Shown piece after piece: positions 16,241 to 37,070 of a DNA stretch of 38,279 nucleotides (position 1 is the stretch's first letter; every line of letters begins with the position of its first letter). Below the pieces are notes generated by a model. The model made no database searches. It was not told the DNA's origin and was given only the letters and a program-made list of their open reading frames with translations. The stretch spans positions 1 to 38,279 of the forward strand of contig JAFNKG010000017.1 of assembly GCA_017883965.1 (NCBI GenBank), read 5' to 3'. Made by a program: the position numbers and the translations under genes. The DNA comes from Candidatus Methanophagales archaeon. GTDB lineage: Archaea > Halobacteriota > Syntropharchaeia > Alkanophagales > Methanospirareceae.

Positions 16241-16927
16241 ATGCCGTGGAATTTAGTAGATCCACTAAACGATGCAAGATTAGAAGATCCAATCACAGGA
16301 AAGCGTAGAATATTTTATCTCCCATTAGTAAGTATTCCACTCGGTTTGGAGGCTGTAGAGACTGGAAATTCATTAAATCAAATTGAAAATACTTCATCTA
16401 ATGCATCTGATGACATTATTAAACCCTACAAAAAGTATTACTACGCTTTACGAACGGAAAATCCCAATAGGATTTATTCCAGAACTGCAAAAGCAGCTGT
16501 TGGTTTCGCTTACGATTATAGCTCTCCTGAAGAACCGATTTGGCAACGGGCGGGATGGGTGAAATTAGATTTTAATGACGATGAACACCCTTGGTCTGAT
16601 GATATCGCTCCAGATCAAATTCTTGCAATTTTATTAGACGTTTCATTAACTAAATCCAATGTTTCTGCAATGATAAAACCAAAAGAAGCAGACAGAGAGT
16701 TTATAAGTCTTTCACAATGGTTAGGGCACCCTATTTTTGATGAAGTAGATAATGCGTGGAAATACAGGTATTATGACACAACAGCAGATTCGAGCAACGA
16801 ATATACCTACCGTCTCAAGCTAATGAGTAAGGTAAGTTTGTTGTTAATTCAGTACAAGAACGAACTGTTCCAGTTCCTAATGGAGGACCATAAATGGCTG
16901 AGAAGTGGAACTTGGTCGACTTGTTAA
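16241..16927 (+). CDS. Uncharacterised operon gene 1; N-terminus paralogous to gene 2; 3' end probably frameshifted (natural stop probably TAA 16891-16893)
   Basis: 228 aa; MPWNLVDPLNDARLEDPITGKRRIFYLPLVSIPLG. An alternative frame after about 16830 reads KFVVNSVQERTVPVPNGGP* and stops exactly before the next ATG. Confidence 0.6.
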   Translation: MPWNLVDPLNDARLEDPITGKRRIFYLPLVSIPLGLEAVETGNSLNQIENTSSNASDDIIKPYKKYYYALRTENPNRIYSRTAKAAVGFAYDYSSPEEPIWQRAGWVKLDFNDDEHPWSDDIAPDQILAILLDVSLTKSNVSAMIKPKEADREFISLSQWLGHPIFDEVDNAWKYRYYDTTADSSNEYTYRLKLMSKVSLLLIQYKNELFQFLMEDHKWLRSGTWSTC

Positions 16928-18585
16928 GCGAACAAAATTCTGAAGACCCGGCTTCAGGAAAACGCAGGAGATTCTATCTCCCATTTGCAAGTGTACCACC
17001 GGGAATGGCAGATATAAACAGAACTATCACGGTTAACAAGAATCTATTCCATCCAGAAGATGGTCAACTAATTCCACATGATTTTCCATTTTTCAATATT
17101 GAAATCAAGCTGCCACCGGGATCGCATTTCTCTGATGATGGGGTTCTACCTGATCCTGCAATTCGCTTACATGCAATTTCAGATGGATTCATTACGTTTA
17201 AACCAGCTACAGATCCTACTAAAAATAGCTTAATTTTGGAGATACTCATACTTCAATTTTATCAATTAATGCTTTCTAAAGTAAAGTGGTGGAGACGTTG
17301 GGTAGAAGCAGGTTGTATTCCACATACTATTATTTATGAAAATATTAATAAAGCTCATCTTGCACTTTTACTTAATACAATCCAAGCACCCATAACTGGA
17401 TCGAGTGATGTCAATGGGGAGTCAATTTTTGGATTGAAATTCCCTGTAGAGCTCACACAAGACGATAAACCAAATTTTATTGCTGAATTTTTAGCTGGTA
17501 ATCAAGAGACATTCTTAAGAGCCGAAGCTGGCGCTTACATTGGAAAAGTAGCAGCAAAAGATCCTGCTGAAGCTAATAATCCAAATTCTGACAAAAAATT
17601 ATCTATTAAAGTTCTCTATCATGATCACACGGATTCACAACCTCACATGATGAATCCTCGTGAACTCTTTCATCTCCTATTTGGTGACAAATCAATCGAT
17701 TATGGTGGTTCTTATGAAGCTCGAAATCATCCACTTCTTTTACGAATAAATGAGGTTGGGCAGAGTCAAAATGATAGAATTGAATCTAAACGAATGTTAC
17801 TTCGACCACCACTACGGACTTGGGCGCGTTTGAGATGGGAGGCCGATCAAGAAGTTACTGTGGAGGAGTATAGGAAGCAATGGGGAAGATACATAGATGG
17901 AGATGAACTACAGGGTGATCAGGTAATTGGTTCAGATAGATTTTATCTATCAAGGGAACATACAATAGGAGTCTTATCCGGACGAGGATTTTTTGATGGA
18001 CCTTATAATGAAAATAAATGTAATCTTTTTGTTTCTGATATCTGTTTAAGGGCGGGGTATAGAGTAAGAGCATTAATTGATGATAACGACTATGTAGCTT
18101 ATTATAGGGTTGGTGATTATGCCAATAATGCTATAAAATTTGTAGACTATCGTGATAAAGAGGGTTATGCCGAAATAAGAAATAGCAATGGAAAATTGTG
18201 GGGAAGAAAATGGGCCTTAAAGTTTGTGCGCATAGATCTTGGGAGTGATAGAACAGAAGAACTTAATAGAATGATGAAGGAGGAAGGTCGCTGTTTTATT
18301 CTATTGTTACATAGACTAGATGGTACTTCTGGACATATTGCAATTGTAAAATTAGCTTTAAAGGATCCCGAAGAAATGGGACGATCACCATTATGGCGTA
18401 AACCCCCTGCTAATGGTCTGAACAAGCTTAAGGCACAGTATTATGAAGCAGTTCTAGATGGCGCAAAAGATCGGGAAATGTACCGCAGAATAATTCCTTA
18501 TTATGATTTATTTCTTGTTGAATTATGTCCTGGAAAGGATCCTGATACTTTAAGTGGTCTAGCAGACCTAATTGTCCTTAACTAG
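16894..18585 (+). CDS. Operon gene 2: protein with NlpC/P60-CHAP-like C-terminal domain
   Basis: 563 aa; N-term MAEKWNLVDLLSEQNSEDPASGKRRRFYLPFASVPPG; C-term NENKCNLFVSDICLRAGY ... SGHIAIVKL (Cys/His spacing like NlpC/P60 or CHAP amidases). Confidence 0.6.
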   Translation: MAEKWNLVDLLSEQNSEDPASGKRRRFYLPFASVPPGMADINRTITVNKNLFHPEDGQLIPHDFPFFNIEIKLPPGSHFSDDGVLPDPAIRLHAISDGFITFKPATDPTKNSLILEILILQFYQLMLSKVKWWRRWVEAGCIPHTIIYENINKAHLALLLNTIQAPITGSSDVNGESIFGLKFPVELTQDDKPNFIAEFLAGNQETFLRAEAGAYIGKVAAKDPAEANNPNSDKKLSIKVLYHDHTDSQPHMMNPRELFHLLFGDKSIDYGGSYEARNHPLLLRINEVGQSQNDRIESKRMLLRPPLRTWARLRWEADQEVTVEEYRKQWGRYIDGDELQGDQVIGSDRFYLSREHTIGVLSGRGFFDGPYNENKCNLFVSDICLRAGYRVRALIDDNDYVAYYRVGDYANNAIKFVDYRDKEGYAEIRNSNGKLWGRKWALKFVRIDLGSDRTEELNRMMKEEGRCFILLLHRLDGTSGHIAIVKLALKDPEEMGRSPLWRKPPANGLNKLKAQYYEAVLDGAKDREMYRRIIPYYDLFLVELCPGKDPDTLSGLADLIVLN

Positions 18586-18621
18586 GTATATTAAAATTGG
18601 AAAAATGAATGAGGTGTAATA

Positions 18622-21600
18622 ATGTCAAATTACTCTGCATCTATAACCGATTTTCTTGAATTATTCCCGGAATTAGATTCATTAATAAACTCAATTTCAG
18701 ATTCACTCCAAAAAATAGGTATAAGTGGAGTTTCTATATCTATTAATGGAACTTCATCCAGTATATGGGGAGATCCTCCTCCTTTACTTAATCATGATGA
18801 TTATTTAGCAACCCTTGATCCTCCAGACTATCTCCAAGCTTATGAAGAATTAGACAACCCTCTCATAGATCCAACTGTAATTTTATCTGAACCAGCTCCA
18901 GAGGACATTTCGATAAATGAGGGAATATACACACCTAGCCAGTATACACTCACTCTCCTATTAAAAGTCCTAAGTGAGGTTGTAATCCAATTTGCAGGCT
19001 TTGATGCAATTAGTCTTGTTTTGAATCCAAGTGGATTTGAAGCAAGTATAACGTTCACTGATGATCAATTTATAAATTTAGGAGTTGGAATAGGAGTTGG
19101 AATCAGATTTTCATCTGATTATTTGCAACCTATGAAAAAAATCACGGAATCTGGTGGAAATGTACAATACGAACCGGATGAAAGTCGTGATTATGTTCAA
19201 GTTGAAATAGCTAGTGCCACGATAACAGTCGATGCAGAAGGCGATTTTGATGTTGAGGGAGGTTTAGGGTTTCAAATAGATGGTCCTGTGATGATTGGGG
19301 AAACAGGAATTATTTTGGAAAACCTTGATATTGAATTGAATTTATCTGGAACTGGGGCTCGACCCGCTGGAACTCCTGATGATTGGAAGGGATTCATGAT
19401 TAACAGTGCAAAATTGGCCATTCCAGATCTTTTTTCGGGATCTATTGATATCACAGGCCTCGGGATTGGGAGTGGGGGAGTCAGTGGCCACATTGGAGCC
19501 AACTTACACATTGATGTCGATGAGGAACGCAAAAATTTTCGGGATTCTACTGAATTGAAAGTCTCCCTTTTTGGAGGAAAATTTGAAGCGGCTCTAGGCG
19601 GAGTAGGTATTACCTTCCTTGAAAATGTACCAACGGAATTTTCTGTTGGAGGCGCCTTGAAACTACCAGTATTCGAAAGAATTGTACGGTTTAACATTGG
19701 TATAGGAGATGATGGAGAGTATATTGGTCAAGTTTCAGGGTATGCTGCTGGTGAGAAAATTTTATTATTTGGCTCTCCTCCTGAGGAAACCCATTTAATG
19801 TTGGAAAGCGTTTCAGTCAGTCGCCAACCACCAGACACGTACGAACTTGCTCTTAGGGATGTTGATTTAGCGATTAAACCCGGCGATGATGGGTTACTAC
19901 AAGAAATTCTTCCTGCAGATGGAATTACCGCGACTGTTGGGGATGATGGAGACCTTATCTTAGGATATTCGTCAAGCCGCGGAGTCTATTTTGAAGGAGG
20001 TAGCATTGAGATTGCTATCCCTCTTCATAAAACATTTGGGCCCGTCACACTTGATGTTCTGTACATTGGATTTAGTTCTTCTGGTTCAACTACGCTTTTA
20101 GAATTAGCCGCTACTTTAGGGGCGAAAATTGGTCCGGTGAGTGGGAGTATTGATAGAATGGGTATTGCCTTGCCCATCACTCCCAACGATAATGGCAATT
20201 TTGGACCTGTGGATATTGGATCTCCCAGATTCAAATTTCCTGATGGGATAGCTCTAGGATTTTCTGGTAATGGGATAACGGGTGGAGGCTCTATTTTTCG
20301 AAACGAAACCCAATATGCGGGTTCGTTTGAACTTAAACTCACTACTTTTGGTATAACAGCCCTTGCAGTGATTGACACCGAACCCGTTTTTTCTTTCATT
20401 GTTGCTATCTTTGCGGAGTTAAATATCCAACTAGGAGCTGGGTTCAAACTTTCAAAGGTGGGCGGTCTTCTAGGTATTCATAGGACGGTGTCTCATCAAA
20501 CCATCGCTCCAGGAATTCAAGCTGGAATCCTTGACGACCTTTTATTTCCTACTAATGTCGTTGAAAATGCCCCTCGTGTTGTTCAAAACTATGCAGCTGC
20601 TTTTCCAGTGCGAAGAGATCAATATTTATTTGGCCCCGCGGTACAAGTTGGATACGGGACCCCCACATTAATTTCAGCTAGTCTTGCTATCCTTCTGGAA
20701 TTCCCCGATCCGTTTGCTATTACCATTTTAGGAAAAATCACCTCAAAAATTCCTGAAGCGGAACCAATCGTGCAACTGAATCTTGGAATAGTGGGTGTAA
20801 TTGACTTTCCAAATAGGTATATGGCCATGTATGGATCATTATACGATTCTCGTCTACTTAGGTTCACACTTTCGGGAAATATGGCAATGACTCTGAGCTG
20901 GGGCTCAGAGAAGAACTTTATTTTTAGTATTGGCGGATTTCACCCGAGATACAAAAAACCTGAAAATTTTCCACCATTTGGAGCACCCCCCCTCAGACGA
21001 TTGCAAATAGCTTTTTCAAACTATGTGACTCTAGAGACGTATTTGGCGATAACAACAAATACATTTCAAGTTGGTGCTCGAGTTGATGCACGATTTTCAG
21101 GTGCCGGAGCTAAAATACATGGATATCTTGGGTTTGACGCATTAATTCAATTTTCTCCTCTTTATTATAAAGTTGAAGTTGCATCTGGATTTTCTGTTAA
21201 ATTCAAAGGAAGATCTCTTGCCAATATAGAATTTGCTGGGTCTTTAAAAGGACCAAATCCTCATAAAATTAAAGGAAAAGCATCTTTTTCGATTTTATGG
21301 TGGGATGTTAAAGTTAAAGTAAAAAAGACCTTTGGTCAAGAGAAACGGGAAGTAGTAGAAAAAAATGATCCTTGGGAACTATTAGAACCCGCAGTTAATC
21401 GTCCAGAGAGCTGGGAACCTATTGTACCTCAATGGGCGCAGAAAGGAGTAGTATTTAGAGACGCTTCTAAAGTTCTTGGATTAGTTCATCCTTTAGGACA
21501 ATTAAAGTTCTCACAAAACGCTGTACCTATTAATTATACAATTGATTGGGTAGTAACCGGAGCGCCTAAGAATTTTTCAAGATTTGAATTAAATACTAAT

Positions 21601-22140
21601 GGTCCAAACTTGATCACTTCTACTGCCCAAGATTATTTTGCTCCTGCGCATTGGACGAAACTAAGTCAAAGTGAGAAGTTAACCGCTAAATCAACAGATC
21701 TAATGGATTCGGGTATAATCATAGAAACCGATGCAGTCGATTTTGATCTAGATTCTCCCTCCCAACGCGAGATGAGTTATGAAACTGTTGTTCATTCCAA
21801 GTTTGAGGAAAGAAGAAAGGTTACTGTAGCCTCTTTCAAACCTAACCTTTTGCAGATTACTTTACTTCAAATGTCAGCTACCGCTTATCGAGTTAATTCA
21901 CTAAATCACATCTCTACACAATATAATTATGGTCATATTGAGCCTGCAACGGCAGTATCGAATGAAAACTTTGTGACTGTTGATGGAAATCTTGAGAAAG
22001 TGACAGAAGCAGAGTTAGTTGGATCGTTTAGCCAAGCAGTTACCCGGAATAAATTACAAGATTATCAGCGTTCACATCTCGAGGATATGCGAGAGTTCCA
22101 AGTAATTTCCGAATTTGAATTAGAGGGAGCGATCTTATGA
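18622..22140 (+). CDS. Operon gene 3: large beta-rich protein, resembles DUF6603-type proteins (from memory)
   Basis: 1172 aa; Gly-rich alternating beta-strand pattern, e.g. GNGITGGGSIFRNETQYAGSFELKLTTFGITALAVIDTEP...GLLGIHRTVSHQTIAPGIQAGILDDLLFP. Confidence 0.6.
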   Translation: MSNYSASITDFLELFPELDSLINSISDSLQKIGISGVSISINGTSSSIWGDPPPLLNHDDYLATLDPPDYLQAYEELDNPLIDPTVILSEPAPEDISINEGIYTPSQYTLTLLLKVLSEVVIQFAGFDAISLVLNPSGFEASITFTDDQFINLGVGIGVGIRFSSDYLQPMKKITESGGNVQYEPDESRDYVQVEIASATITVDAEGDFDVEGGLGFQIDGPVMIGETGIILENLDIELNLSGTGARPAGTPDDWKGFMINSAKLAIPDLFSGSIDITGLGIGSGGVSGHIGANLHIDVDEERKNFRDSTELKVSLFGGKFEAALGGVGITFLENVPTEFSVGGALKLPVFERIVRFNIGIGDDGEYIGQVSGYAAGEKILLFGSPPEETHLMLESVSVSRQPPDTYELALRDVDLAIKPGDDGLLQEILPADGITATVGDDGDLILGYSSSRGVYFEGGSIEIAIPLHKTFGPVTLDVLYIGFSSSGSTTLLELAATLGAKIGPVSGSIDRMGIALPITPNDNGNFGPVDIGSPRFKFPDGIALGFSGNGITGGGSIFRNETQYAGSFELKLTTFGITALAVIDTEPVFSFIVAIFAELNIQLGAGFKLSKVGGLLGIHRTVSHQTIAPGIQAGILDDLLFPTNVVENAPRVVQNYAAAFPVRRDQYLFGPAVQVGYGTPTLISASLAILLEFPDPFAITILGKITSKIPEAEPIVQLNLGIVGVIDFPNRYMAMYGSLYDSRLLRFTLSGNMAMTLSWGSEKNFIFSIGGFHPRYKKPENFPPFGAPPLRRLQIAFSNYVTLETYLAITTNTFQVGARVDARFSGAGAKIHGYLGFDALIQFSPLYYKVEVASGFSVKFKGRSLANIEFAGSLKGPNPHKIKGKASFSILWWDVKVKVKKTFGQEKREVVEKNDPWELLEPAVNRPESWEPIVPQWAQKGVVFRDASKVLGLVHPLGQLKFSQNAVPINYTIDWVVTGAPKNFSRFELNTNGPNLITSTAQDYFAPAHWTKLSQSEKLTAKSTDLMDSGIIIETDAVDFDLDSPSQREMSYETVVHSKFEERRKVTVASFKPNLLQITLLQMSATAYRVNSLNHISTQYNYGHIEPATAVSNENFVTVDGNLEKVTEAELVGSFSQAVTRNKLQDYQRSHLEDMREFQVISEFELEGAIL

Positions 22141-25100
22141 GTTTAACGCAATTGGGTAAATATACGTTTTTGCCATGGATTAGATCAGGGATAGGAACTT
22201 TAATTACCGTCGATGAGGATACTCTAGTAGATCCTAGGGCTACAATCAATGTACAAGCGAATATTCGCAGGTTTGATCTCGCTGGTAATGAAGCTGCAGC
22301 ATATCCAGTCCAAAGTGGAGAAATGAAGATTCATGGACCTGGAGATGTCCAAGGGCTCATCAAAAATATAATTATAAGACGTTACCCTAAACCGAATACT
22401 CCTAATGCCGAAGAAAACAAATTTGCGTTAGTGGAATTCTCGCAGGGGGATTTCCCATGGCGATTTACACCAGTTAAACCGAAAAATTCAGCTCCAGCAC
22501 AACTTCGTCCATGGCTTTGCTTAATTGTTTTGAAACAAGAAGAGTTTAATGGCCCTACTACTGGCAGTCTATTACCACAAATAACTATTCTCAACCCACA
22601 AAACTCTTTACCGGATTTAGCCCAAATTTGGGCATGGGCACATTGCCAAATCACTGAAGAGGTAAATGATCCTGACCGATTAAGTGAAATATTAAGATTT
22701 GAGCCGTATAAGGTAACTTCGAGGATCCTTTGCCCACGTAAGCTCGATCCTTTAACAAAATATTATGCGTTTCTTGTTCCAACATTTGAAGCCGGCAGAT
22801 TGGCTAGTCTTGATCTAGGATCAGAAAATTTGTCTGGAATTCAATTAGCATGGGATGTCTCGCAGACAAATCCATTACTTATTGGTGTTTATGATTGGTG
22901 GACTTTTACTACTGGACCTGCGGGGGACTTTGAATCACTTGTACGAAAACTTCATCCTGATATTTTGGATGAAACCGTAGGTATCCGAGATCTTGATCTA
23001 ACTGATCATAATTTTACCCCTGAAATTCCCCCGCTGTCTAAACCACTTAGTTTGGGAGGAGCCTTATGGTCGAAAGAAGCTTTTGAAAAACGAAAACAAA
23101 TTGACGTTTTCAATTATACAGTAACTAATCCAGGTTCCGATAGTCCAACTTCAGATGAAATTAAAGCGCTGATTATTAAAGAAAGAACATATATTGATAT
23201 AGATGAAAAATTTAGATGGAATATTCATAATCCGAGAGCTACTGCTGAGGATCCAATTATTTCCTTACCAAAATATGGAAAGTGGCATGCGGGAAAGCGG
23301 TTGGTTACTAGGATTACAAGTGATCCTCAAGATTATAAATGGATAGATGATCTGGGTACCGAGTACTGGGTACCGAGTGATTTGCTGAATAAAATTCGAA
23401 ATGATCCCCCATATCCATGGTTTGAGCAGCTAAATTTAGATCCTGCGAATCGCGCAGCTACGGGTCTTGGGACCGCAATCATTCAACAACTACAAGAAGA
23501 AATAATGGCTGCTGCTTGGGATCAAGCAGGGGAGATACTTGCTGTCAACAATTTGCTTAAGTGGGCCCAGCTTGCCCGAATAGTTTCAGAAAATTTATAT
23601 GAAAAATCTTTTCAACATATGACCCCTGATGGGTTAATCCTTCTGACTTCACCCTTACATCGTAAATTAAAACATAAAGAAAATAATAAACTGTTTCATA
23701 AAATTTTTCAGGATAGTCCCATTCCGTATGCGTTCTTCTCTCCAGCATTTAAAAGACTGATTCGCCGACGCGGTAAAGTTCACCGGAAATTCTTTAATTC
23801 CGATAACATTCTGACAAACAATCTCCTTCATATCTTTAATACTAATCCTTCAAATCCCGATCCTAATCCTGCAACAAGCGACGATTTGTTGACATTTGAT
23901 AATGCGTTACAAGATGCAAGTCTGGAATTACAAGACGCAACTGAACAAGATTTTCAACAATCCATTTCCTCTTGGTGGAAGAAACTTCTTCTTTGGTTAA
24001 TGTATTGGAGTTGTCGAATCATCATATTATACCCGATTTGCCTCCTTCTCAGATTCATCATTAGACTATTATTTAGGTATCCAATGAATGATCCATTATA
24101 TGATCCAAGAAATGTTGAAACTTTTCGACGTGAAGCAGAGAATATAGAAGCAACTATTCCACTGGCTAGTGATACAATTCCGTATATTCAAGGTGAAATT
24201 GTCCCATTAGAACAAATTCATACAAAATTGTTAACAGGATTGCATCCTCACCGTACAATTCAGTTAAAAATCTTAACACAGGTGAAGAGACCAACTCGAT
24301 GGAATGAGGAATCTAAAGACAAACTAAATCCTAATATCATGGCTTATTTCAAAATAAAACGCCCGATGTATGAACCATTACGTGATATTTCACAGGAGTT
24401 ATTATTACCCGGGGTAGGAGAAATTAAACAGAATATTATCAGTTTACTTCAGACGAATTCAGTTTTTGTTTATAGCCTTTTAACTGGATGTAATCATGAA
24501 ACCGCACGAGAATGTTTGTGGCGAGAATTTCCAACGGATTTACGAGGTTCATTTATTCGACAATTTTGGGATCCAGAAATTGCAGTTATGAGAGAGCGTC
24601 TAGAAAAGTTAAAACAAACTGGGAAAAATATTAGAGATAAATTGACTCCTGAAGAGGAAGAAGAAATCGTAGAAAAATATCGTGACATACCTGAAATTCA
24701 TAAGTGGAAGAACATATCGCTAGGAGAAAGCTTAACCGATACTTCAGGAGAAAGAACGGTCCTTATTATCAAAGGAGAGGTGTTACGACGATATCCATCA
24801 ACCGCTATCTATGCCATTCGCGGTATCTTTCACCAATATACGGAAGGAGCGGAGGAGGTACCGACAGTCGCCCTTCCAACCGTAGAAAAACCAAATGGAG
24901 ATCTTTATTACCCAGAAAAAGCAGAAAATGAGGAAGTAAAATATCCAATTTTTCGAGGTACAATAGAACCCGATATCACCTTTTTTGGATTTGACATTCC
25001 CCCAGAAGAGGTTCGTGGTAATCTAGATGACAGATCAAACGATCAGAATGCTGGTTGGTTTTTTGTTATCCAAGAACAACCCTCTGAACCCGTATTTGGC

Positions 25101-25364
25101 TTAGATTTACCAGTCGGTGACTCTCCTGGAGCCATCAACAATTGGAATGATCTGACATGGAGTCATGTCAGTTTATCTTCCTCTCGGCATATTAAAATCA
25201 AAGATGCTAATGAACATAGTGAGCTAAAACAAAATGGTAATGGAAGAATTTTATCTTATATGTCTGGAGTGGAGTGGGGAGCTGACGCGGCTGATATGGC
25301 GAACATCACATTACAAATGCCTGTACGAGTAGCTACTCACGCATCAGAAATGGTAGAAGAATAA
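22137..25364 (+). CDS. Operon gene 4: uncharacterised 1075-aa protein with internal hydrophobic segment
   Basis: ATGA overlap with gene 3 stop; VYDWWTFTTGPAGDFESLVRKLHP; internal KKLLLWLMYWSCRIIILYPICLLLRFIIRLLF. Confidence 0.6.
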   Translation: MSLTQLGKYTFLPWIRSGIGTLITVDEDTLVDPRATINVQANIRRFDLAGNEAAAYPVQSGEMKIHGPGDVQGLIKNIIIRRYPKPNTPNAEENKFALVEFSQGDFPWRFTPVKPKNSAPAQLRPWLCLIVLKQEEFNGPTTGSLLPQITILNPQNSLPDLAQIWAWAHCQITEEVNDPDRLSEILRFEPYKVTSRILCPRKLDPLTKYYAFLVPTFEAGRLASLDLGSENLSGIQLAWDVSQTNPLLIGVYDWWTFTTGPAGDFESLVRKLHPDILDETVGIRDLDLTDHNFTPEIPPLSKPLSLGGALWSKEAFEKRKQIDVFNYTVTNPGSDSPTSDEIKALIIKERTYIDIDEKFRWNIHNPRATAEDPIISLPKYGKWHAGKRLVTRITSDPQDYKWIDDLGTEYWVPSDLLNKIRNDPPYPWFEQLNLDPANRAATGLGTAIIQQLQEEIMAAAWDQAGEILAVNNLLKWAQLARIVSENLYEKSFQHMTPDGLILLTSPLHRKLKHKENNKLFHKIFQDSPIPYAFFSPAFKRLIRRRGKVHRKFFNSDNILTNNLLHIFNTNPSNPDPNPATSDDLLTFDNALQDASLELQDATEQDFQQSISSWWKKLLLWLMYWSCRIIILYPICLLLRFIIRLLFRYPMNDPLYDPRNVETFRREAENIEATIPLASDTIPYIQGEIVPLEQIHTKLLTGLHPHRTIQLKILTQVKRPTRWNEESKDKLNPNIMAYFKIKRPMYEPLRDISQELLLPGVGEIKQNIISLLQTNSVFVYSLLTGCNHETARECLWREFPTDLRGSFIRQFWDPEIAVMRERLEKLKQTGKNIRDKLTPEEEEEIVEKYRDIPEIHKWKNISLGESLTDTSGERTVLIIKGEVLRRYPSTAIYAIRGIFHQYTEGAEEVPTVALPTVEKPNGDLYYPEKAENEEVKYPIFRGTIEPDITFFGFDIPPEEVRGNLDDRSNDQNAGWFFVIQEQPSEPVFGLDLPVGDSPGAINNWNDLTWSHVSLSSSRHIKIKDANEHSELKQNGNGRILSYMSGVEWGADAADMANITLQMPVRVATHASEMVEE

Positions 25365-25379
25365 AAGAAGGTACGATTA

Positions 25380-28300
25380 ATGATTGATCTGGGACCAGAA
25401 TATCCAATATTGTTATTTCCAATAAGAATAGAAACAAAATACGCTGAGGAGGCTGGTGTAAAGAAACTACGAATCCGCTTCTTCCCTGATCAGGTTTCAA
25501 TTGAGGGTTTGGATCCTAGACTTACGCAGGAAGAATACGATGATGCCAAAGCATACTGGGAAGAAGTGGGAAAGTATGTAGGTACAAGTGAATTTGAAAC
25601 AAAACGGAATGAGGTGTGGTTAACACTTGTGGAGGAGTATGATTGCTATAGAGCAAGTTATATTGTAAAGAAAGTTATAAATTACGATCCAACAACAGAT
25701 CCTGATCCAGAAAGCCCGATAATTCGCCCAGTATCCGAATTTGAATTCCGGAGTACAGAAGACCATGTATCCGCTAGTTATAACACACTCCCTAAAAAGT
25801 TTATAATCTATGGGGAGTATAATGATTCGGCTTTAACTCCTTTAGAACATATTGTCACCGAACCTACACTAGTAGCCGGGTTGAAGGTTAGTCCTCTTCC
25901 AATAGTTGTTAAAGCATTTGAGGGATCCATTCAGGCTCCTGTTGCGCCTCTACCGCCGCCATCCGATGATCCTTATGAAGATCTTGACGAAGAATTGAAA
26001 TGGATGTCTAATTTTGAGGAGGCCAAGAATAAAGGAATGGCTGCGGAAATACCACAAACTGATCAAGAATATGATAGTGGCTTTAAATATCTCATAGTTT
26101 ATGGAGTGAGGGATCACCAAACTCCTCAAGAAACAAAAGCAATGATTAAAAAGCTCTTTAATTCTCACCATTATGACCATGGTTTTAGTTTTCTCAAACA
26201 AAATACTCCTACAAATTTAATAGACGGACAGAATGACGAATTTTCCTCTGCTGATCCGGAGCCGGTAAATTGGCGGAATGATGAATTTACCCGACTCGAA
26301 GACGGTTCGGATGGAAAACTGTTTGAAAAAATTTTAGGTCTCGATTTTGTAGCCCAGGGCGTTCAAAATGCTAATATTCGTGAACAAATAGAATCTAAAA
26401 ATATGGCTTCAGCACTGTTTCCAGCAGTTCTGGGTTATTATTTTCAACGATTTTTATTTCACAATGAACTTCCCAATCCAATTCCTCTTGCTACTCTTAA
26501 ATCGTTTTTTGAAAATTATGTCTCTCCACCGGGCATTGTATTTCGGATAGGGCAGGTACCATATGGAGTACTACCAACAACAATCTTAAACCAATGGATA
26601 GATCAAGAACTAATTCCTCGAACAGATTATGTGAAGACTTTTTTTGGTAAGTTACAAGAAACTTGGTTGAAACTTGCTGAAGAAGTTCCTTCCGTAATGA
26701 ATCCAGAAGTAGATGTAACGCCAGAACAGAATTTGATTAATATTCTCTCAATGGATGCTCATTCTCATTCATATTATGTTAGAGGAGTCCGATTATTACA
26801 ATACGTATATTTTCTTGTATCTTATTTTTTTAGCTATCGTAAACCTTTTTCAGAGCTTCAAAATCTCCATAAAGAAAAAGCGGCTGCACTGTGGAATCAG
26901 ACATTTAGCCATTCTGAAGACCAAAACCCAACTAACCTCGAATCATGGTTCTATAATGTAGTACCAGGCGATGGCATTTCAGAATTAACTTATCCGCTTG
27001 TTGGAGATCCAAAATACATTAATGAATTAATAGACAATATTGATGAATACTATAGGAAAACAGAAGATGAACATGTAGCCAATTATCAAGACACTCCCTT
27101 ATTACAAAAGCTGTTAATCTTTTCAGCAAACTTTTTAGGAACATATAACATCGAAGATAATCAAAAACAGGAATTCATTGACAATCTTACTGTTTTATCA
27201 CAATTAAGCCCTGAAAAGTTAGAACTTCTATTGTTAAAAACATTAGATTACACATCATATCGATTGGACAGTTGGTTGACAGCTTTTGCGGCTCAAAGGC
27301 TACAGCAATTACGTTCTAACCCGGCGAATAAAAAAGGCTTATATCTTGGAGTATTTGGCTGGATAGAAAATTTAAAACCCAATGAAAAAAGTCCTGCTTA
27401 CGAGGGAGGATACATACATGGGTTTTCGCACGCCCATGCTAGCGCCTTGGCAATTGCTCGGGACGGCTATCTTAATCAGTTGAGTGATCCCGAAAAAAAA
27501 GATCTTCTAAAAATCAATCTTAATTCGGAGCGTACAAGAAACGCATTAGAAACATGCCAGGCTTTACAGAACATACCGTTGTCTGAATTTCTAGGAATGA
27601 AATTAGAAAGAAGGTTACATGATGCAGACCTGGATTATGTGATAGATGAATTTAGAACCCACTTTCCTCTACAGACCGATGATATTGAAGAATTATCAGA
27701 GGTTGTTGACGAAACACGGGAAAGAGTCGTTCCACGAAACTTGACAAATGGTTTGCAAGTTCAAGAGCACTGGAAACGTCTTAAAGATTCATTAAATGGC
27801 ATATCAATTCAAAATTTCCTAAGAACTGATGAAACTTGGAAGCCCTTCTATGACGACATCCAAAGGTACTTTTCAAGCAATCCAAATCTTATAGCCAAGC
27901 TTAGTTCTCATTTAAACTATTTACTTGATATTGTTGACGGATTATCGGATCTACTCTTGCTTGAAAGTCTCTATCAAGTTGTAAATCTCAAATTTGATCA
28001 TTCTGCTGCCGTTTTAGATGGAATGAGCGGCGATGGTCAAATTCCCCCTCTTGAATCTCCATACATTCCAATAACTGGGCCACGAATAACACGGAGAATA
28101 ATTCTTCCGATTGTAATAGATCCATTTACTGTGGGAACTCTCACTGTTCCAGCGGCAGATAGTAATCCTGTTGAGATGAATCCAAAGAAATTGGCTGAAC
28201 CGCATTTTAATAATATCCTTGCAAGTTATTACGGGGATCTTCGATTCTGGATATCTGAAAAAGATGAAGATGGAACTGTCACGAACACAGCTGAAGTTAC

Positions 28301-29732
28301 TTTATCCGACTTAAATTTAGAACCTATTGATTTATTGTTTATTCATGAACCTGAACTACGAAACAGACTTCTATATTATGGCAGAAATAATCTGACTTGG
28401 CAAAATGTTGAGATAAACGATTTCAAAAAACCATCCAATGAAGGAACGGATAAAATCTCTTTTTCAGAAGCTCAATTTATGATCAATTCCCTAAAACAGC
28501 TTGTCGGTAAAGGACAACCCCTAAGGTATGGCCATTTAGTTTCACCTCAAGGGAATGACCTAAATTACAAGATCTTTGAAGAATTATTTGAATTATTAGT
28601 TCGTTTATTGAATGTGGTGCATTTACTTCGTTATGTATGTCTAGAGTTAGGCAATGCCAAAGCTAATGACACAGATCTGGCAAGAAAAAGGGCAGCTCTT
28701 CTGCATGCAAGTTTCTTTGGAGTTTTATCCTCAGTTCCACTTACCCGAGAGGAAACGATTCTAGAAACAGCTGCTGATTTAAACAGTAGAATCAATTTAA
28801 TTGAGGCTGAGTTGAGCAACAGATTGGAACCCATCATACAAGAATTGTTTGTTAAACTGAAAGCATATGGTATAACTGATGATATTATTGATGATATTAC
28901 CACTTTTAAGGCAATTCTTGATTTCTTTGGTCCCAAAGTCACTGATACAAATACATTAATCGACTGGATCCATAGTCTAGTAGGAAACGCCAGTTTGACC
29001 CCTCAAGAAAACGAGCAAAACCGTCGAGAGTTTGCATCATTCCTATTGGAACGCTTATTGGATGCATTCAAGGGAATATTCAGGAATAACACGTTTCTTG
29101 TGCTTCCTCTATTTTCTCCTTTCAAAGTAATGCTAGAAAACTTGGAAAACAATAATGAAATCAATAAAAAAGGTCATAAATGGATGCAAAAGAATTCTTA
29201 TGTAAGACCGAGGTTAAAATTGTTTGACCGAGTCCTAGATTACAACGAAATATTTGAAACGGCCACTTTTTCGTTTTATTATGATCCCCAAAAATTTTCT
29301 CGAAGTTCAGATGAAATCTTGCAGAACGAAGAAAATCCTGTAGTACTTCTGGCAATTTCCTCTCATGGCTCCAGAGTCGCTAGTCCTCCTAGTTTTCCTC
29401 CAACCTCCGATTCAAATAAAAAGTTAGCTGGGCTCGTACTAGATGATTATACCGAAAAAATTGTCCATCCTGAACAAGAAACAGTTGTAGCATTTCATCA
29501 TAATAGTCCTAATGCGGAGCCCCCCCACTGTTTGTTATTAGGTGTATCTCCGAATGATAACGATAACTGGACTAAAGAAATGGTTAGGGACGTAATTCTG
29601 GAAGCATTAAAACTCGCCAAAATTCGTTCTGTTGATTATAGATCCTTAAAAGGATTATCAAATTTTCTTTCTTTAACTACACTTAACTCCTATGGTGATG
29701 AGGTGTATACAAATCTGTACGGTTTGTCCTGA
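25380..29732 (+). CDS. Operon gene 5: uncharacterised 1450-aa protein
   Basis: N-term YPILLFPIRIETKYAEEAGVKKLRIRFFPDQVSIEGLDPRLTQEEYDDAKAYWEEV resembles an uncharacterised bacterial family (PVRLETRF...YPDxxxxDxxEPxLTxxE) recalled from memory. Confidence 0.6.
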   Translation: MIDLGPEYPILLFPIRIETKYAEEAGVKKLRIRFFPDQVSIEGLDPRLTQEEYDDAKAYWEEVGKYVGTSEFETKRNEVWLTLVEEYDCYRASYIVKKVINYDPTTDPDPESPIIRPVSEFEFRSTEDHVSASYNTLPKKFIIYGEYNDSALTPLEHIVTEPTLVAGLKVSPLPIVVKAFEGSIQAPVAPLPPPSDDPYEDLDEELKWMSNFEEAKNKGMAAEIPQTDQEYDSGFKYLIVYGVRDHQTPQETKAMIKKLFNSHHYDHGFSFLKQNTPTNLIDGQNDEFSSADPEPVNWRNDEFTRLEDGSDGKLFEKILGLDFVAQGVQNANIREQIESKNMASALFPAVLGYYFQRFLFHNELPNPIPLATLKSFFENYVSPPGIVFRIGQVPYGVLPTTILNQWIDQELIPRTDYVKTFFGKLQETWLKLAEEVPSVMNPEVDVTPEQNLINILSMDAHSHSYYVRGVRLLQYVYFLVSYFFSYRKPFSELQNLHKEKAAALWNQTFSHSEDQNPTNLESWFYNVVPGDGISELTYPLVGDPKYINELIDNIDEYYRKTEDEHVANYQDTPLLQKLLIFSANFLGTYNIEDNQKQEFIDNLTVLSQLSPEKLELLLLKTLDYTSYRLDSWLTAFAAQRLQQLRSNPANKKGLYLGVFGWIENLKPNEKSPAYEGGYIHGFSHAHASALAIARDGYLNQLSDPEKKDLLKINLNSERTRNALETCQALQNIPLSEFLGMKLERRLHDADLDYVIDEFRTHFPLQTDDIEELSEVVDETRERVVPRNLTNGLQVQEHWKRLKDSLNGISIQNFLRTDETWKPFYDDIQRYFSSNPNLIAKLSSHLNYLLDIVDGLSDLLLLESLYQVVNLKFDHSAAVLDGMSGDGQIPPLESPYIPITGPRITRRIILPIVIDPFTVGTLTVPAADSNPVEMNPKKLAEPHFNNILASYYGDLRFWISEKDEDGTVTNTAEVTLSDLNLEPIDLLFIHEPELRNRLLYYGRNNLTWQNVEINDFKKPSNEGTDKISFSEAQFMINSLKQLVGKGQPLRYGHLVSPQGNDLNYKIFEELFELLVRLLNVVHLLRYVCLELGNAKANDTDLARKRAALLHASFFGVLSSVPLTREETILETAADLNSRINLIEAELSNRLEPIIQELFVKLKAYGITDDIIDDITTFKAILDFFGPKVTDTNTLIDWIHSLVGNASLTPQENEQNRREFASFLLERLLDAFKGIFRNNTFLVLPLFSPFKVMLENLENNNEINKKGHKWMQKNSYVRPRLKLFDRVLDYNEIFETATFSFYYDPQKFSRSSDEILQNEENPVVLLAISSHGSRVASPPSFPPTSDSNKKLAGLVLDDYTEKIVHPEQETVVAFHHNSPNAEPPHCLLLGVSPNDNDNWTKEMVRDVILEALKLAKIRSVDYRSLKGLSNFLSLTTLNSYGDEVYTNLYGLS

Positions 29733-29775
29733 AAGAGAATCCCAAGTGAATTGAGTATTAGTTGAGGAATTAATA

Positions 29776-31707
29776 ATGAATCAAACCTTAAAGCCGGATC
29801 TTAGTTGGGCTAAAGCCCCTAGCGTCCTTCGCGGCCCTCGCGGCTTATTACAATTTCAACTGCTCAGTTGGCAAAGATTAGAACCACATTCCCGAAGCAG
29901 TGATATTTCCAAGGGAGTTCAAGCAACTATTCATGATCCGGCATGGCTGCTATCAAGGCAATTAGTTTTAGGAGAATTTGAAGGAGAGGATGCTGCTTCA
30001 GTTGTCTATGTAAGAATGTCTGAAAATCATGATCAGATACATAAAATTATTATCGGAGGGGAAAATCTGGATTATGATCCAGAAATACCTCTGGAAGTTC
30101 TTATTGAAAAAACCAACTTGGAAGTCGCTACTTCTGATTCATCTGGGAAGCGAGACAAAAAACTTGATCTTCAAATGCGTGTAAAATTAGGTTTACAGTT
30201 TTTCAAGGAAATGAAAACAAGATTACAAGGAGTACTTAATTCAGATGAGATTGTTGCCCTAAAAAATTATCTTGCAGGTCAAGATGGTTATTTATTTCAG
30301 TTAAATGACCATCAAGCAAGATTTGAACTTAGTATTACTCATGATTTTTGTTCGATGATACAAAAGAGAGTTATCGACATCTATCAAGCATTTAATTCTG
30401 AAAATCTAGGTCCTGAATTACTGGGAAAGCTAGAAACATATTATAGCTCCAGAGATCCTGAATTCATAAATAATGTCGTGACAGCACTCCTTGAAGCGTA
30501 TAAAAACTTATTAGACTGGTGGAACGGTTCTAATAGTGAAACCCCATTTTTTGAAAAACCTACAAGTGATCATTCAGCTTGGGACCCTAGTAAACTGGAA
30601 TATAAGTTTAAAGTACAAGTAGGGCCTGATAATAACAAGCTTATCTGTGTAGCGGAAAGATATAAAGAGGATCACCTAAGTTGGCATTCATTCACTATAG
30701 AAAGCCATTCAGATAATTTCTTGCTTCCAGAAAGTTCTGATAATCCTCGTATTGTAATTCCACGGCATCTTCGGGTACCTGGACAACCTGTGAAGAGATA
30801 TTGGAACTTTGAAGATTCTTATGTAAATTTTGGCGCAATAACACCGAAAATCACAAATATCGCCACTTTGCTTCTCCTAGAGTTTTCATTTGTTCACTCC
30901 GCTGATTGGTATGTAATCCCCCTGACGATGCAGATGGGAACTCTTAGTCAAATTCAAGAATTGAAAGTTGTAGATACTTTTGGGGATGAAATAGAAATCA
31001 ACCCTGCAGGACAAACATCTCAAGAGCAAGAATTGCTAGATGAAGACGCAGCCTGGGATTCCTGGAACCCTTTTACACTTTCAAAAAAATATCAATATGG
31101 AACACGGTTGAATTCCAATTATCTCTTTTTACCGCCAGTTATTAGTGATCTTACAATTGGACCCCATCATGAAGAGATCAAATTCTTACGAGATGAAGTA
31201 GCCAATCTTGCTTGGGCGATTGAAAAAACATATCGAACCTTATATGGAGAAGCGATTTCGGGTTACGAGCACTATCATTATCGTAAGAATCAATTAATCC
31301 AAAATGAAGCTGAGATTCAAGCAGGAAGTAAAAATGCCCTTAAATTTACCTTTATGACCGATGTTCCATGGAATTGGATTCCATTCATTCCAGTTCATGG
31401 AGCAAAATTTTCGAGTGCCGATTATCCTGATCATCGCCAAATAGTATATCAACGAGGAGCCATGATCAACCGATATACTGATACTCCCGAACCAATTCGA
31501 CCTAACTCGCGATTATTAAATGAAGTTCCATCCCCTTATTTCGTCGATGAATCAATAATTCCAAGAACGGGTTTAATTTTATCGGAAAGATTTCAACGAA
31601 CTGTGTGGTTTAATGGAAAGGACTTTCTTTGGATAGGACAAAAGAAGATGATAGGAACTGGTGAGGGATACAGCGGTTTAATTTTTGATAAGGTTTCTCT
31701 ACCTTGA
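29776..31707 (+). CDS. Operon gene 6: uncharacterised 643-aa protein
   Basis: N-term LLSWQRLEPHSRSSDISKGVQATIHDPAWLLSRQLVLGEFEGEDAASVVYVRM resembles an uncharacterised bacterial family (WxRLEPxxR...DPxWLLxRQWQLGEFxGEDAGSP) recalled from memory. Confidence 0.6.
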   Translation: MNQTLKPDLSWAKAPSVLRGPRGLLQFQLLSWQRLEPHSRSSDISKGVQATIHDPAWLLSRQLVLGEFEGEDAASVVYVRMSENHDQIHKIIIGGENLDYDPEIPLEVLIEKTNLEVATSDSSGKRDKKLDLQMRVKLGLQFFKEMKTRLQGVLNSDEIVALKNYLAGQDGYLFQLNDHQARFELSITHDFCSMIQKRVIDIYQAFNSENLGPELLGKLETYYSSRDPEFINNVVTALLEAYKNLLDWWNGSNSETPFFEKPTSDHSAWDPSKLEYKFKVQVGPDNNKLICVAERYKEDHLSWHSFTIESHSDNFLLPESSDNPRIVIPRHLRVPGQPVKRYWNFEDSYVNFGAITPKITNIATLLLLEFSFVHSADWYVIPLTMQMGTLSQIQELKVVDTFGDEIEINPAGQTSQEQELLDEDAAWDSWNPFTLSKKYQYGTRLNSNYLFLPPVISDLTIGPHHEEIKFLRDEVANLAWAIEKTYRTLYGEAISGYEHYHYRKNQLIQNEAEIQAGSKNALKFTFMTDVPWNWIPFIPVHGAKFSSADYPDHRQIVYQRGAMINRYTDTPEPIRPNSRLLNEVPSPYFVDESIIPRTGLILSERFQRTVWFNGKDFLWIGQKKMIGTGEGYSGLIFDKVSLP

Positions 31708-33428: not shown

Positions 33429-34271
33429 CTAACCAATCGTATTCAAGCTCACAAGAACCAAGACAATAGCGAGTAGCAGATAATTTACAATCAACGCGAG
33501 GAGGGTGGCCCGTTCCCACGAAAGATGCTTCAAATCGCTTATAGCGGCAGATATTACTAGCACACTCCAAATCTGCGCCCCAACCTCCACAAGTAGAAGA
33601 GTTCCGGAGCTGATGGATTCTATGAGCTCCAATCGCGTTAGAAGAAAAACTAAAACTCCCAGAACTCCCGGTAGAACAAATATCAATGAACACGCAGTGG
33701 CAAGCGCCAGGGTGTTTTTCGGGCGTCCATAGACTTTTCTGGCTAACAGTTCCAAAGTTATGGCGCACAAGCTCCAACTACCAAGTCCCAGTAGGATCAC
33801 CTCATGGGGTTTAAGTCCAGAGCTCGCGAGCAGAAACGGACCGAAGACTACCGCTCCTATGCTGATAACGAACCAGAGAAAACTTAAAACAACAATAGCT
33901 CCTTCAACGAAGGAACGAGTTGGGTTATCAGCAAAAGAACGAAATAGCGGGGTGAAAACCTTGAGAGAGGGGATTGGAACTGGCTTTAGCTCCGAGACCA
34001 GAGCGCCCTCAGAGGAGTGCACAAGTTCGATCGCTCGCGCCCCCTTGGGGGTCAGCCGGTACTTCTTGTTGGGTCCCTGCTCGATCAACTCCCTCATCAG
34101 TCGCAAGTGATGATACAACGTCCCGGCCTGGAGGCCCATTTCTTCGGTAAAGATGCTATAGGACACTTCGCCTCGGTTGTGGATTTCTTCGAGGATTCTC
34201 CGGCGGAGGGGATGCGCAAGTATTTCAAAAATCGTCTGTTCGTTTGTGGTCTTCTTGCTCCCCGAGGTCAT
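33429..34271 (-). CDS. ArsR-like winged-helix transcription regulator with C-terminal multi-TM domain
   Basis: 280 aa; TIFEILAHPLRRRILEEIHNRGEVSYSIFTEEMGLQAGTLYHHLRLMRELI then several hydrophobic helices. Confidence 0.8.
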   Translation of the reverse strand: MTSGSKKTTNEQTIFEILAHPLRRRILEEIHNRGEVSYSIFTEEMGLQAGTLYHHLRLMRELIEQGPNKKYRLTPKGARAIELVHSSEGALVSELKPVPIPSLKVFTPLFRSFADNPTRSFVEGAIVVLSFLWFVISIGAVVFGPFLLASSGLKPHEVILLGLGSWSLCAITLELLARKVYGRPKNTLALATACSLIFVLPGVLGVLVFLLTRLELIESISSGTLLLVEVGAQIWSVLVISAAISDLKHLSWERATLLALIVNYLLLAIVLVLVSLNTIG

Positions 34272-34348
34272 ACCCCACCTACTTCCTAAAACAGTTATTT
34301 CCTCAAATGTTCTAAAAAAGGCATCGAAAAAAAAAAGAGAAAAAGGGC

Positions 34349-35524
34349 TTAGCCTTTTTTCCGTCGCAAAAGCACAGGCACCGAGACCACTAGCAGGGTT
34401 GCAACCAATGCTCCGAAGAACAGGTTCGCTATAGAGATGTGCGGAATGACCTCCTTCAATTTCTCCGCGATGATGCCCAGCTGCGGCAACGACACTCGAA
34501 TCCCTTGCGCGTATGAAAGGGCACTCAGGGGTGTCCCTATCTTCGGATCATGGATGATTTTCGATCCTAAGGGGTATAGCATATTAAACTTAAGTTCGCT
34601 ATACTCATCGTCGGATTCGTAATCGAATAACTCCACTTCAACCGTACCCGGACTTCCTTCAACCAGAACGGTGCTAACCCAGGTGTACTCCACAGAGTGA
34701 TCACCGATCGTTGCCTTCAAGCCCACGACGTTATCTTCAGCGTCTGTTATGTTAGCAATCGAAGTACTGGTCTCCAACATCGTTTCGAGAGCCAACTTGC
34801 TGGCTTCAGTCGAGTACTCGAAATTGTGGATCTCAATGTCGATCTTCAAGGTGGTGGGTGGGGTCTGTTCTCCGTTGATGACCGCGAACCCTTCAGGAGC
34901 GAACAATCTCACCAAGAAGACTCCTCCATCGCTAGTGGCAGTTATTTCATGCAAGGACTCACCATCATCAGATGCATCGGGGTCGTAGTTAATATCGAAT
35001 ACGAAGCCTTCCAGTGGATAGGGTTCTCCTATGGGATCTCCATCAGCGGTGTACGCAATGAGCTGGGTGAACTGAACCACCAGTTCGACATCGCTGCTTA
35101 CACTTTCTGCATCTGATCTGTACTCATATTTGATTCGAAGGCCCTCTTCTGCTACTAGCTCCGTCTTGAATTCGTCCTTGGCGCTAGCTTTGCGCTCCGA
35201 TTCGATTATCACTCGATTGCCATCCTGAAATGAGCGGACATTCCTGTCGAGTAACGCTTCAGCTGTGTCGATTATGCCATCACCATCGTCGTCCGGTTCT
35301 TCTTCCTCTTGTTCCTCTTCCTCTTGTTCCTCTTCCTCTTGTTCCTCTTCCTCTTCCTGTCCCCCTTCAATCCCTTCCCCAGGATCTACCGGCGGTTCTG
35401 GCTGGTTGTCATCTGCTAACACTGGTCCACCAACCACAAAGCCACCGAAAAGGATCGAGAAGGTCGCAATGAAGGTCGCAAGGAAAATCAAGGCATATTT
35501 CCGCTTTCTAGCTGTTTTCAGCAT
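34349..35524 (-). CDS. Secreted/surface protein with signal peptide, acidic linker and C-terminal TM anchor
   Basis: 391 aa; N-term hydrophobic signal, (QEEEE)n, DDDGDGIIDTAEALL calcium-loop-like, C-term NLFFGALVATLLVVSVPVLLRRKKG. Confidence 0.75.
   Translation of the reverse strand: MLKTARKRKYALIFLATFIATFSILFGGFVVGGPVLADDNQPEPPVDPGEGIEGGQEEEEEQEEEEQEEEEQEEEEPDDDGDGIIDTAEALLDRNVRSFQDGNRVIIESERKASAKDEFKTELVAEEGLRIKYEYRSDAESVSSDVELVVQFTQLIAYTADGDPIGEPYPLEGFVFDINYDPDASDDGESLHEITATSDGGVFLVRLFAPEGFAVINGEQTPPTTLKIDIEIHNFEYSTEASKLALETMLETSTSIANITDAEDNVVGLKATIGDHSVEYTWVSTVLVEGSPGTVEVELFDYESDDEYSELKFNMLYPLGSKIIHDPKIGTPLSALSYAQGIRVSLPQLGIIAEKLKEVIPHISIANLFFGALVATLLVVSVPVLLRRKKG
35299..35358 (+). repeat. 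15-nt minisatellite (ttcctcttcctcttg)n encoding the acidic QEEEE repeat on the minus strand
   Basis: About four tandem near-identical units. Confidence 0.85.
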
Positions 35525-36239: not shown

Positions 36240-37070
36240 TTAGATTAAATCTAACACCCAGAGAACCAAAAAGTTTGCATACAAGGCACCTAAGGCTAAA
36301 ACTAACACCTTTTCCAAGGCTAACATCTTTATTTTTCGTAAATTGAATACTTGAATTTGTAGACTCCAGACTTGGAGCCCCGTGACTATCACAAATGCGA
36401 TGGTCGCGGGAATTCTGGTGATCCCGAGTAAGCGAAATAGGAGATACCAAATGCTTAGGAAGAGGGTTTGTGGAATGAATGAGATCACCGTGATGAACCA
36501 TACGCCACGCAAGCCTTGGGGTCTGGCAAAGAAGTAGCGGGATCCGCCCTCAAAGAATAAAAAAAGGAAAAGACAGCTCGCTATAACAGCTAGAAGCGAA
36601 ACCGGGAACGAATACCCCTCGAAAAGAATTATATAGCCTGCAACTACTGAATTCATTGAGGAGGATAACCATCCCAACACGCTGATAATCAGCAGAGCTT
36701 CCAGAGACGAATGTATTGGAGCATGAACAAAACCATTAATCAGTTTTTGGAGGGACAGAGCCTTAAAGAATCGGTTCTTTTGGATTCCTGGTCCTTTTTG
36801 CGACGGTAATGTCGAAACAAAGTCTGTTCCAGTGTCGAGCAATTTACTCACTTGCACTCCAAGAAGACTGAAGCTATAACGTTTATCTTTGTCTTGAACC
36901 ACCAGTTCTTTCAGAATTCCAAGATGATGATACAATCTTCCCGGAGTAATTTGTAACTCTGCTATCAAGTCTGAATATGTGACGATCTCCCGTTCTGCGA
37001 TCAATCGGAGGATTTGTCGGCGAATTGGATGACCAAGAGCTTCATAGAATTCCTGTTCTTTATCATGCAA
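36240..37070 (-). CDS. ArsR-like winged-helix regulator with C-terminal multi-TM domain (paralog of 33429-34271)
   Basis: 276 aa; EFYEALGHPIRRQILRLIAEREIVTYSDLIAELQITPGRLYHHLGILKELV plus TM helices. Confidence 0.8.
   Translation of the reverse strand: MHDKEQEFYEALGHPIRRQILRLIAEREIVTYSDLIAELQITPGRLYHHLGILKELVVQDKDKRYSFSLLGVQVSKLLDTGTDFVSTLPSQKGPGIQKNRFFKALSLQKLINGFVHAPIHSSLEALLIISVLGWLSSSMNSVVAGYIILFEGYSFPVSLLAVIASCLFLFLFFEGGSRYFFARPQGLRGVWFITVISFIPQTLFLSIWYLLFRLLGITRIPATIAFVIVTGLQVWSLQIQVFNLRKIKMLALEKVLVLALGALYANFLVLWVLDLI

What the first reader, a model, noticed from the sequence alone, without database searches (positions are those of the whole stretch)
16241..31707. Operon of giant uncharacterised proteins (candidate undescribed multi-protein system)
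Six plus-strand genes (228, 563, 1172, 1075, 1450 and 643 aa) lie end to end with gaps of 0-43 nt or ATGA overlap, so about 15.5 kb is probably one transcript. None carries an ATPase, polymerase, transposase or phage-structural signature I recognise. The N-termini of genes 5 and 6 and the beta-rich gene 3 resemble (from memory) large uncharacterised bacterial proteins. Conserved stoichiometric co-transcription of several >1000-aa proteins with a beta-rich member and a papain-like amidase domain suggests a large assembly such as a surface or particle machine, or a toxin-delivery or modification complex. Function is inference only.
Basis: partly seen in the sequence, partly recalled or inferred. 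Interest (0 to 1): 0.9.

Follow-up and report, generated by a model that had tools for sequence, protein, structure and literature searches.

The report
Modular enzyme-carrying complex, undescribed
A block of four giant proteins, always found together across many bacteria and archaea and absent from the literature I could search, appears to form a scaffold that carries an exchangeable enzyme (a phosphatase, phospholipase or protease), each enzyme matched to its own adaptor.

Summary
In detail: six plus-strand genes lie nearly end to end at 16241-31707. Genes 3-6 (1172, 1075, 1450, 643 aa) are a real four-gene module. They occur in the same order and orientation in 64 loci that carry all four at full length, and in the other loci wherever contig and reading frame permit. 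Hosts span about a dozen bacterial and archaeal phyla. In independent whole-genome searches gene 3 and gene 4 mark exactly the same 5 of 397 genomes, and gene 3 and gene 6 the same 12 of 300. Only gene 3 has a known domain (DUF6603, unknown function). Gene 4 models confidently (pLDDT 82, pTM 0.75) and matches no PDB fold.

The decisive find is modularity. The gene just upstream of gene 3 encodes a swappable hydrolase without a signal peptide: PhoD-like, PLD, subtilase, trypsin-like or M64. The first ~520 residues of gene 3 change with the hydrolase; its DUF6603 half and genes 4-6 stay constant. Gene 4 also has a hypervariable insertion holding membrane or binding domains.

Best reading: a scaffold (g4-g6) plus an adaptor (g3) that carries a cognate enzyme, probably outside the cytoplasm. 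Location, assembly and target are inferred.

The parts
16241..16927 (+). g1, 228 aa; its first ~47 residues resemble the N-terminus of g2 (47% identity); no homolog found elsewhere
16894..18585 (+). g2, 563 aa; occupies the place of the variable enzyme (payload) gene; papain/NlpC-like by eye only (CNLFVSD..SGHIAIV), unverified
18622..20178 (+). g3 N-terminal ~519 residues: the part that in relatives changes together with the upstream enzyme (putative cognate adaptor)
20179..22140 (+). g3 C-terminal part, constant: DUF6603 (Pfam match 20023-21672), long amphipathic antiparallel beta-meander in the model
22137..25364 (+). g4, 1075 aa, core scaffold protein; confident model, no PDB fold match
23793..24224 (+). 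hypervariable insertion of g4 (here 144 aa, approximate limits, with a helix at residues 610-645 holding a membrane-like hydrophobic segment); elsewhere ~40-870 aa with LamG, PKD or FG-GAP domains
25380..29732 (+). g5, 1450 aa, core protein of unknown fold
29776..31707 (+). g6, 643 aa, core protein with conserved DPxWLLxRQ..GEF.GEDA and RDE.AN.AW..E motifs

Best explanation
Genes 3-6 encode a conserved four-protein assembly that carries an exchangeable hydrolase. g4, g5 and g6 form the scaffold. g3 is a two-part connector: its constant DUF6603 half belongs with the scaffold and its variable N-terminal half binds the particular enzyme encoded just upstream. The single-site insertion in g4 carries a membrane-anchoring or target-binding domain. 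The assembly probably acts outside the cytoplasm (cell surface or released) and brings the enzyme to an envelope, lipid, phosphate or protein target. Shown: the conserved module, the co-occurrence, the enzyme swapping, the coupling of the g3 N-terminus to enzyme type, and the variable g4 insertion. Inferred: physical complex, docking, extracytoplasmic location, target, and g2 as the payload in this archaeon.
For: The same gene order and strand hold in 64 loci with all four full-length genes, mostly with short gaps or overlaps. Co-occurrence is exact: DUF6603 above cut-off and g4 in the same 5 of 397 genomes; strong DUF6603 (E<1e-100) and g6 in the same 12 of 300. The upstream gene is a hydrolase of changing type: PhoD-like in 32 loci, S8, M64, PLD, trypsin-like, beta-lactamase-like, Het-C. 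Three Nitrospira loci at one genomic site carry PLD, M64 or PhoD, and nucleotide similarity is lost from the enzyme gene into g3 and resumes inside g3. Within one locus two g3 copies are 84-90% identical in the C-part and 23-27% in the N-part. Between Nitrospira loci the N-part is 31-95% identical for the same enzyme and 19-28% for different enzymes at similar C-part identity. Over all labelled loci the effect is 7.9 against a null of 0 +/- 0.86 (0 of 1000). The switch point is sharp. The window fits: its g3 is 48% identical to that of its nearest relative in the C-part and 19% in the N-part, and the upstream genes differ. The g4 insertions carry LamG, PKD, FG-GAP or a membrane helix, and haloarchaeal g6 a lamin-tail domain, which are mostly extracellular or surface-type domains.
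Against: No signal peptides on core or (mostly) enzyme proteins and no export apparatus in the operon, so extracytoplasmic action needs an unknown route or lysis. No immunity gene was recognised between enzyme and g3. In the window itself the payload g2 has no recognisable enzyme family. About a third of the g3 copies have an upstream gene of unassigned type (26 of 79), and some PhoD-like members lack one or more of the metal-site motifs tested for. No protein-protein contact was tested.
Confidence: 0.55

Rival explanations
1. An intracellular defence (conflict) complex: g3-g6 sense an invader (phage, plasmid) and unleash the exchangeable hydrolase inside the cell.
For: Swappable effectors, including proteases and PLD, are typical of defence systems; distribution is patchy and spreads between phyla and domains; no signal peptides; the window's left arm holds a HerA-type ATPase and a TIR protein; some copies lie next to recombinases.
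Against: No core protein matches PADLOC beyond a single weak hit; flanks of other copies are not rich in defence genes; there is no NTPase, nuclease or nucleotide-signalling domain in the core; LamG, PKD, FG-GAP and lamin-tail insertions point outward.
Confidence: 0.25
2. A static cell-surface layer or hydrolase array: structural proteins that simply hold nutrient-scavenging enzymes (PhoD phosphatase, proteases) on the cell, with no delivery to other cells.
For: PhoD-like phosphatase is the commonest payload, surface-type domains occur, and a membrane segment lies in the g4 insertion of the window and most of its clade.
Against: Enzymes and core lack signal peptides. PLD and Het-C payloads and the tight enzyme-adaptor coupling are more than a scavenging operon would need.
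Confidence: 0.12
3. DUF6603 is itself a membrane pore or lipid-binding groove (like LptD, ushers or ApoB), and the system moves lipids or opens membranes for the enzyme.
For: The model shows ~30 long antiparallel strands with strong hydrophobic/polar alternation (2.95 against a null of 1.25 +/- 0.17); Foldseek top hits are FimD, SlpA, LptD and ApoB100.
Against: TM-scores are 0.29 or lower, so the fold is not the same; alternation is also expected of a buried sheet; pTM is only 0.51; many hosts lack an outer membrane.
Confidence: 0.06

Closest known systems
Extracellular contractile injection systems (eCIS; PMC8213781)
   Same: Organisational logic: conserved core genes, variable payload encoded in the same operon, variable target-binding part, patchy spread over environmental bacteria and archaea, payloads without signal peptides.
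   Different: No sheath, tube, spike, baseplate or ATPase domain in g3-g6. Four haloarchaea-like genomes with the module have no sheath gene, although the window's own genome does on another contig. No phage relatives of g3, g4 or g5.
Type VI secretion adaptor-effector modules (VgrG/PAAR/Tap-type, from general knowledge)
   Same: An effector gene and its cognate adaptor region are exchanged together beside a constant core.
   Different: No homologous component was recognised here; the adaptor is the N-terminal half of a DUF6603 protein.
Pfam PF20248 (DUF6603)
   Same: Gene 3 is a full-length member (E 1.7e-108).
   Different: The family has no described function, partners or paper in the held library; the partners and the adaptor-payload link are new here.
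Tc (toxin complex) particles (from general knowledge)
   Same: Giant multi-protein assemblies with an exchangeable enzymatic payload.
   Different: No significant sequence similarity of g3-g6 to any solved structure; the payload is a separate upstream gene, not a C-terminal hypervariable region.

Membership tests
DUF6603 (PF20248) | Pfam match above the gathering score | tested here: met
   363.8 bits against a cut-off of 27, profile 1-501 of 502
eCIS / contractile injection system | Sheath, tube, baseplate or spike domains in the operon | tested here: not met
   No significant Pfam, NCBIfam or PHROG hit of that kind in g3-g6
eCIS / contractile injection system | Phage-tail ancestry (homologs in phages) | tested here: not met
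   No g5 or g3 match in 50,697 phage records; no g4 relative in viral contigs
eCIS / contractile injection system | Depends on a sheath system in the same genome | tested here: not met
   5 of 13 genomes with the module have no sheath match, including 4 nearly complete archaeal genomes of the host's phylum
Known anti-phage defence system | Core proteins match defence family models | tested here: not met
   Only one weak PADLOC hit, 12.4 bits, E 0.017
Known anti-phage defence system | Protects against phage | not testable with these tools
   Needs a plaque assay
Adaptor-effector module (functional class) | Adaptor part co-varies with effector type while the core stays constant | tested here: met
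   g3 N-part 31-95% identical for the same enzyme, 19-28% for different enzymes
Adaptor-effector module (functional class) | Direct binding of adaptor and effector | not testable with these tools
   Needs pull-down or structure
Papain-like / NlpC-P60 hydrolase (g2) | Profile match with Cys-His site | tested here: inconclusive
   No Pfam, NCBIfam or PDB match; Cys and His segments seen by eye only
Large beta-barrel / LptD-like lipid groove (g3) | Same fold (TM-score above 0.5) | tested here: not met
   Best TM-score about 0.29

The most novel reading that the evidence does not exclude
A new, pan-prokaryotic class of modular protein-delivery or enzyme-presenting particle, unrelated to phage tails or any known secretion system, built of three scaffold proteins with new folds and a DUF6603 adaptor whose N-terminus is exchanged together with its enzyme cargo.
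Probability: 0.45. Interest if true: 0.95.

Novelty: categorically new. Interest (0 to 1): 0.87.

Why it matters
A four-gene machine conserved from haloarchaea and an mcrA-bearing archaeon to Nitrospira, Streptomyces, cyanobacteria and Bacillota has no described function, partner list or paper in the library I could search. The enzyme-adaptor coupling turns four 'hypothetical proteins' into a testable system. It predicts which protein pairs bind and which residues of g3 form the docking part. If it delivers or displays enzymes outside the cell, it would be a new kind of prokaryotic machine; if it is defence, a new effector-swapping family.

Tried and rejected
1) Known injection or secretion machine: no matching domains in four libraries; no significant PDB sequence relatives of g3-g6. 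2) Phage or viral origin: no hits; BFVD matches of the g3 model are not meaningful. 3) Papain-like domain in g2: not confirmed. 4) A shared N-terminal tag of g1/g2 as a general docking signal: found only in the window. 5) A ~115 aa C-terminal domain shared by subtilase and trypsin-like payloads as a universal docking domain: found only in those two types, so not universal. 6) Dependence on a contractile system: rejected. 7) Defence-island context of the module in general: weak. 9) A profile-profile comparison among g3-g6 timed out and was not repeated, so distant kinship among the four is untested.
Full report
OBSERVATION. The window is a whole contig (C45) of a 2.48 Mb, 92.7% complete genome. 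The host is an archaeon: it carries methyl-coenzyme M reductase genes and two of the archaeal 16S probe sites tested. Pfam, NCBIfam, PHROGs and PADLOC recognise nothing convincing in the six proteins except DUF6603 in gene 3 (E 1.7e-108). No paper in the held library mentions DUF6603 or its accessions; preprints are not held, so absence there is not proof.

THE CONSERVED UNIT IS GENES 3-6. A tblastn of gene 5 against plasmids found relatives in Streptomyces, Rhizobium, Gemmatirosa and haloarchaea. In these loci the same series, DUF6603 - g4 - g5 - g6, lies in order on one strand. A scan of 85,462 species genomes with a g4 alignment gave 80 loci. Profiles of all four proteins found the same order wherever contig ends and reading frames allow; 64 loci have all four at full length. 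The median gap is 3 nt between g3 and g4 and 8.5 nt between g5 and g6. Hosts include Nitrospirota, Actinomycetota, Pseudomonadota, Acidobacteriota, Cyanobacteriota, Chloroflexota, Bacillota, Bacteroidota, Planctomycetota, Gemmatimonadota, Goldiibacteriota, haloarchaea and Nitrososphaerales. That set was found through g4 and g5, so I tested co-occurrence independently. Among 397 genomes of the host's phylum, DUF6603 above cut-off marks 5 genomes and g4 marks exactly the same 5. Among 300 genomes of a class in that phylum (taken to be the haloarchaea), strong DUF6603 (E<1e-100) marks 12 and g6 exactly the same 12. The module is sparse: none of about 50 other genomes of the host's family has it. 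In the g4 tree the window groups with a Nitrososphaerales archaeon (46% identity) inside a well-supported clade with Bacteroidota, Planctomycetota, Acidobacteriota and a gammaproteobacterium, so transfer between domains of life is likely.

A SWAPPABLE HYDROLASE UPSTREAM. The gene just before g3 is not constant. In 32 loci it is a PhoD-like metallophosphatase. In others it is a subtilase (S8), a trypsin-like protease, an M64 peptidase, a phospholipase-D-like protein, a beta-lactamase-like protein or a Het-C-like protein. Catalytic motifs are present in all S8, M64 and PLD members tested, in 18 of 33 PhoD-like sequences under strict patterns, and in 3 of 5 trypsin-like ones. N-terminal hydrophobic segments are absent or rare in enzymes and core alike, while two exported-type neighbours score high.

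ENZYME AND g3 N-TERMINUS ARE EXCHANGED TOGETHER. Three Nitrospira loci at the same genomic site (flanking proteins about 58-78% identical) carry PLD, M64 or PhoD. Nucleotide similarity is lost around the start of the enzyme gene and resumes inside g3. Several Nitrospira operons hold two enzyme-g3 pairs followed by one g4-g5-g6 set. Within such an operon the two g3 copies are 84-90% identical in the C-part and 23-27% in the N-part. Between Nitrospira loci the N-part is 31-95% identical when the enzyme type is the same and 19-28% when it differs, although C-part identity is similar (means 84% and 77%). Over all labelled loci the excess N-part similarity for same-enzyme pairs, after regression on C-part identity, is 7.9 points against a null of 0 +/- 0.86 (0 of 1000 label shuffles). 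Shuffles do not remove relatedness fully, but the within-operon comparison does. The switch is sharp and falls at window residues 519-537 of g3. A sister pair outside Nitrospira, L039 PhoD and L069 M64, shows the same (N 26%, C 64%). The window fits: against its nearest relative L080, which has a trypsin-like gene upstream, its g3 is 48% identical in the C-part and 19% in the N-part. I therefore read the N-part as a cognate adaptor for the enzyme and the DUF6603 part as the connector to g4-g6. Binding itself was not shown.

ANATOMY OF THE CORE. The g3 model (60 sequences) is poor in the variable N-part and good in the DUF6603 part: about 30 long antiparallel strands with strong hydrophobic/polar alternation (2.95 against a null of 1.25 +/- 0.17). 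Foldseek returns ushers, LptD, an outer-membrane protein and ApoB100, but with TM-scores of 0.29 or less: a similar architecture in general terms, not the same fold. g4 models well (pLDDT 82, pTM 0.75) and has no PDB match (best E 0.07), so it may be a new fold. g4 carries a single hypervariable insertion of about 40-870 aa: a membrane-like segment in the window and five other loci, FG-GAP in an actinomycete, PKD in a chloroflexote, LamG in a Nitrospira; a haloarchaeal g6 has a lamin-tail domain. This looks like an anchoring or binding site. No significant PDB sequence relatives exist for any of the four.

MECHANISM. Most likely (0.55): g4-g5-g6 form a scaffold; g3 docks to it through DUF6603 and holds the cognate hydrolase through its N-part; the g4 insertion anchors or targets the assembly; the whole acts outside the cytoplasm. 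Export route, stoichiometry and target are unknown. The main rival (0.25) is an intracellular defence complex with exchangeable effectors. It is favoured by the lack of signal peptides and, in this window only, by a HerA-type ATPase and a TIR protein upstream; it is disfavoured by outward-type insertions and by the absence of defence-family matches. A static surface array (0.12) and a membrane/lipid device (0.06) are less likely.

COMPARISON. The logic resembles eCIS (PMC8213781) and T6SS adaptor-effector modules, but no defining part of a contractile system is present, phages lack relatives and several hosts lack any sheath gene. It is a member of Pfam DUF6603, which is a name without a function. 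I class the system as categorically new, with the reservation that preprints and closed journals were not searchable.

Noticed in passing
1954-3132 and 3165-6002: A HerA-type ATPase appears split over two ORFs: Walker A in the first, the continuation (Walker B-like ILIEEAQQL) in the second; matches PADLOC HerA and mad8 models. The stretch has higher G+C (0.47-0.53) than most of the window.
   Followed up: partly
7720-8373 (-): TIR-domain protein, similar to ThsB models; with the HerA-type gene it suggests a small defence island on the left arm.
   Followed up: partly
33429-35524 (-) and 36240-38141 (-): Two tandem pairs of similar layout: a helix-turn-helix protein with membrane segments plus a protein with an N-terminal hydrophobic segment and a C-terminal membrane anchor.
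   Followed up: no
G000:C36:14969-15403: The host genome has a phage-sheath-like gene (PF04984, E 3.8e-20, 808-aa open frame) on another contig, perhaps a contractile injection system or prophage in an mcrA-bearing archaeon.
   Followed up: no
L016, L019, L035, L083 and others, between g4 and g5: Nitrospira modules insert a conserved ~270-345 aa coiled-coil-like gene between g4 and g5.
   Followed up: partly
L030, L035, L044, L047, L007, L010 upstream genes: Unrelated subtilase and trypsin-like proteases share a ~115 aa C-terminal domain (..RR.A..WHR..GP..L..).
   Followed up: yes
G434:C11:304433-305683 and G294:C1:2693563-2694006: Very weak DUF6603-like matches inside giant open frames (2886 and 2318 aa) in genomes of the same class without g6; possible distant paralogs.
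   Followed up: no
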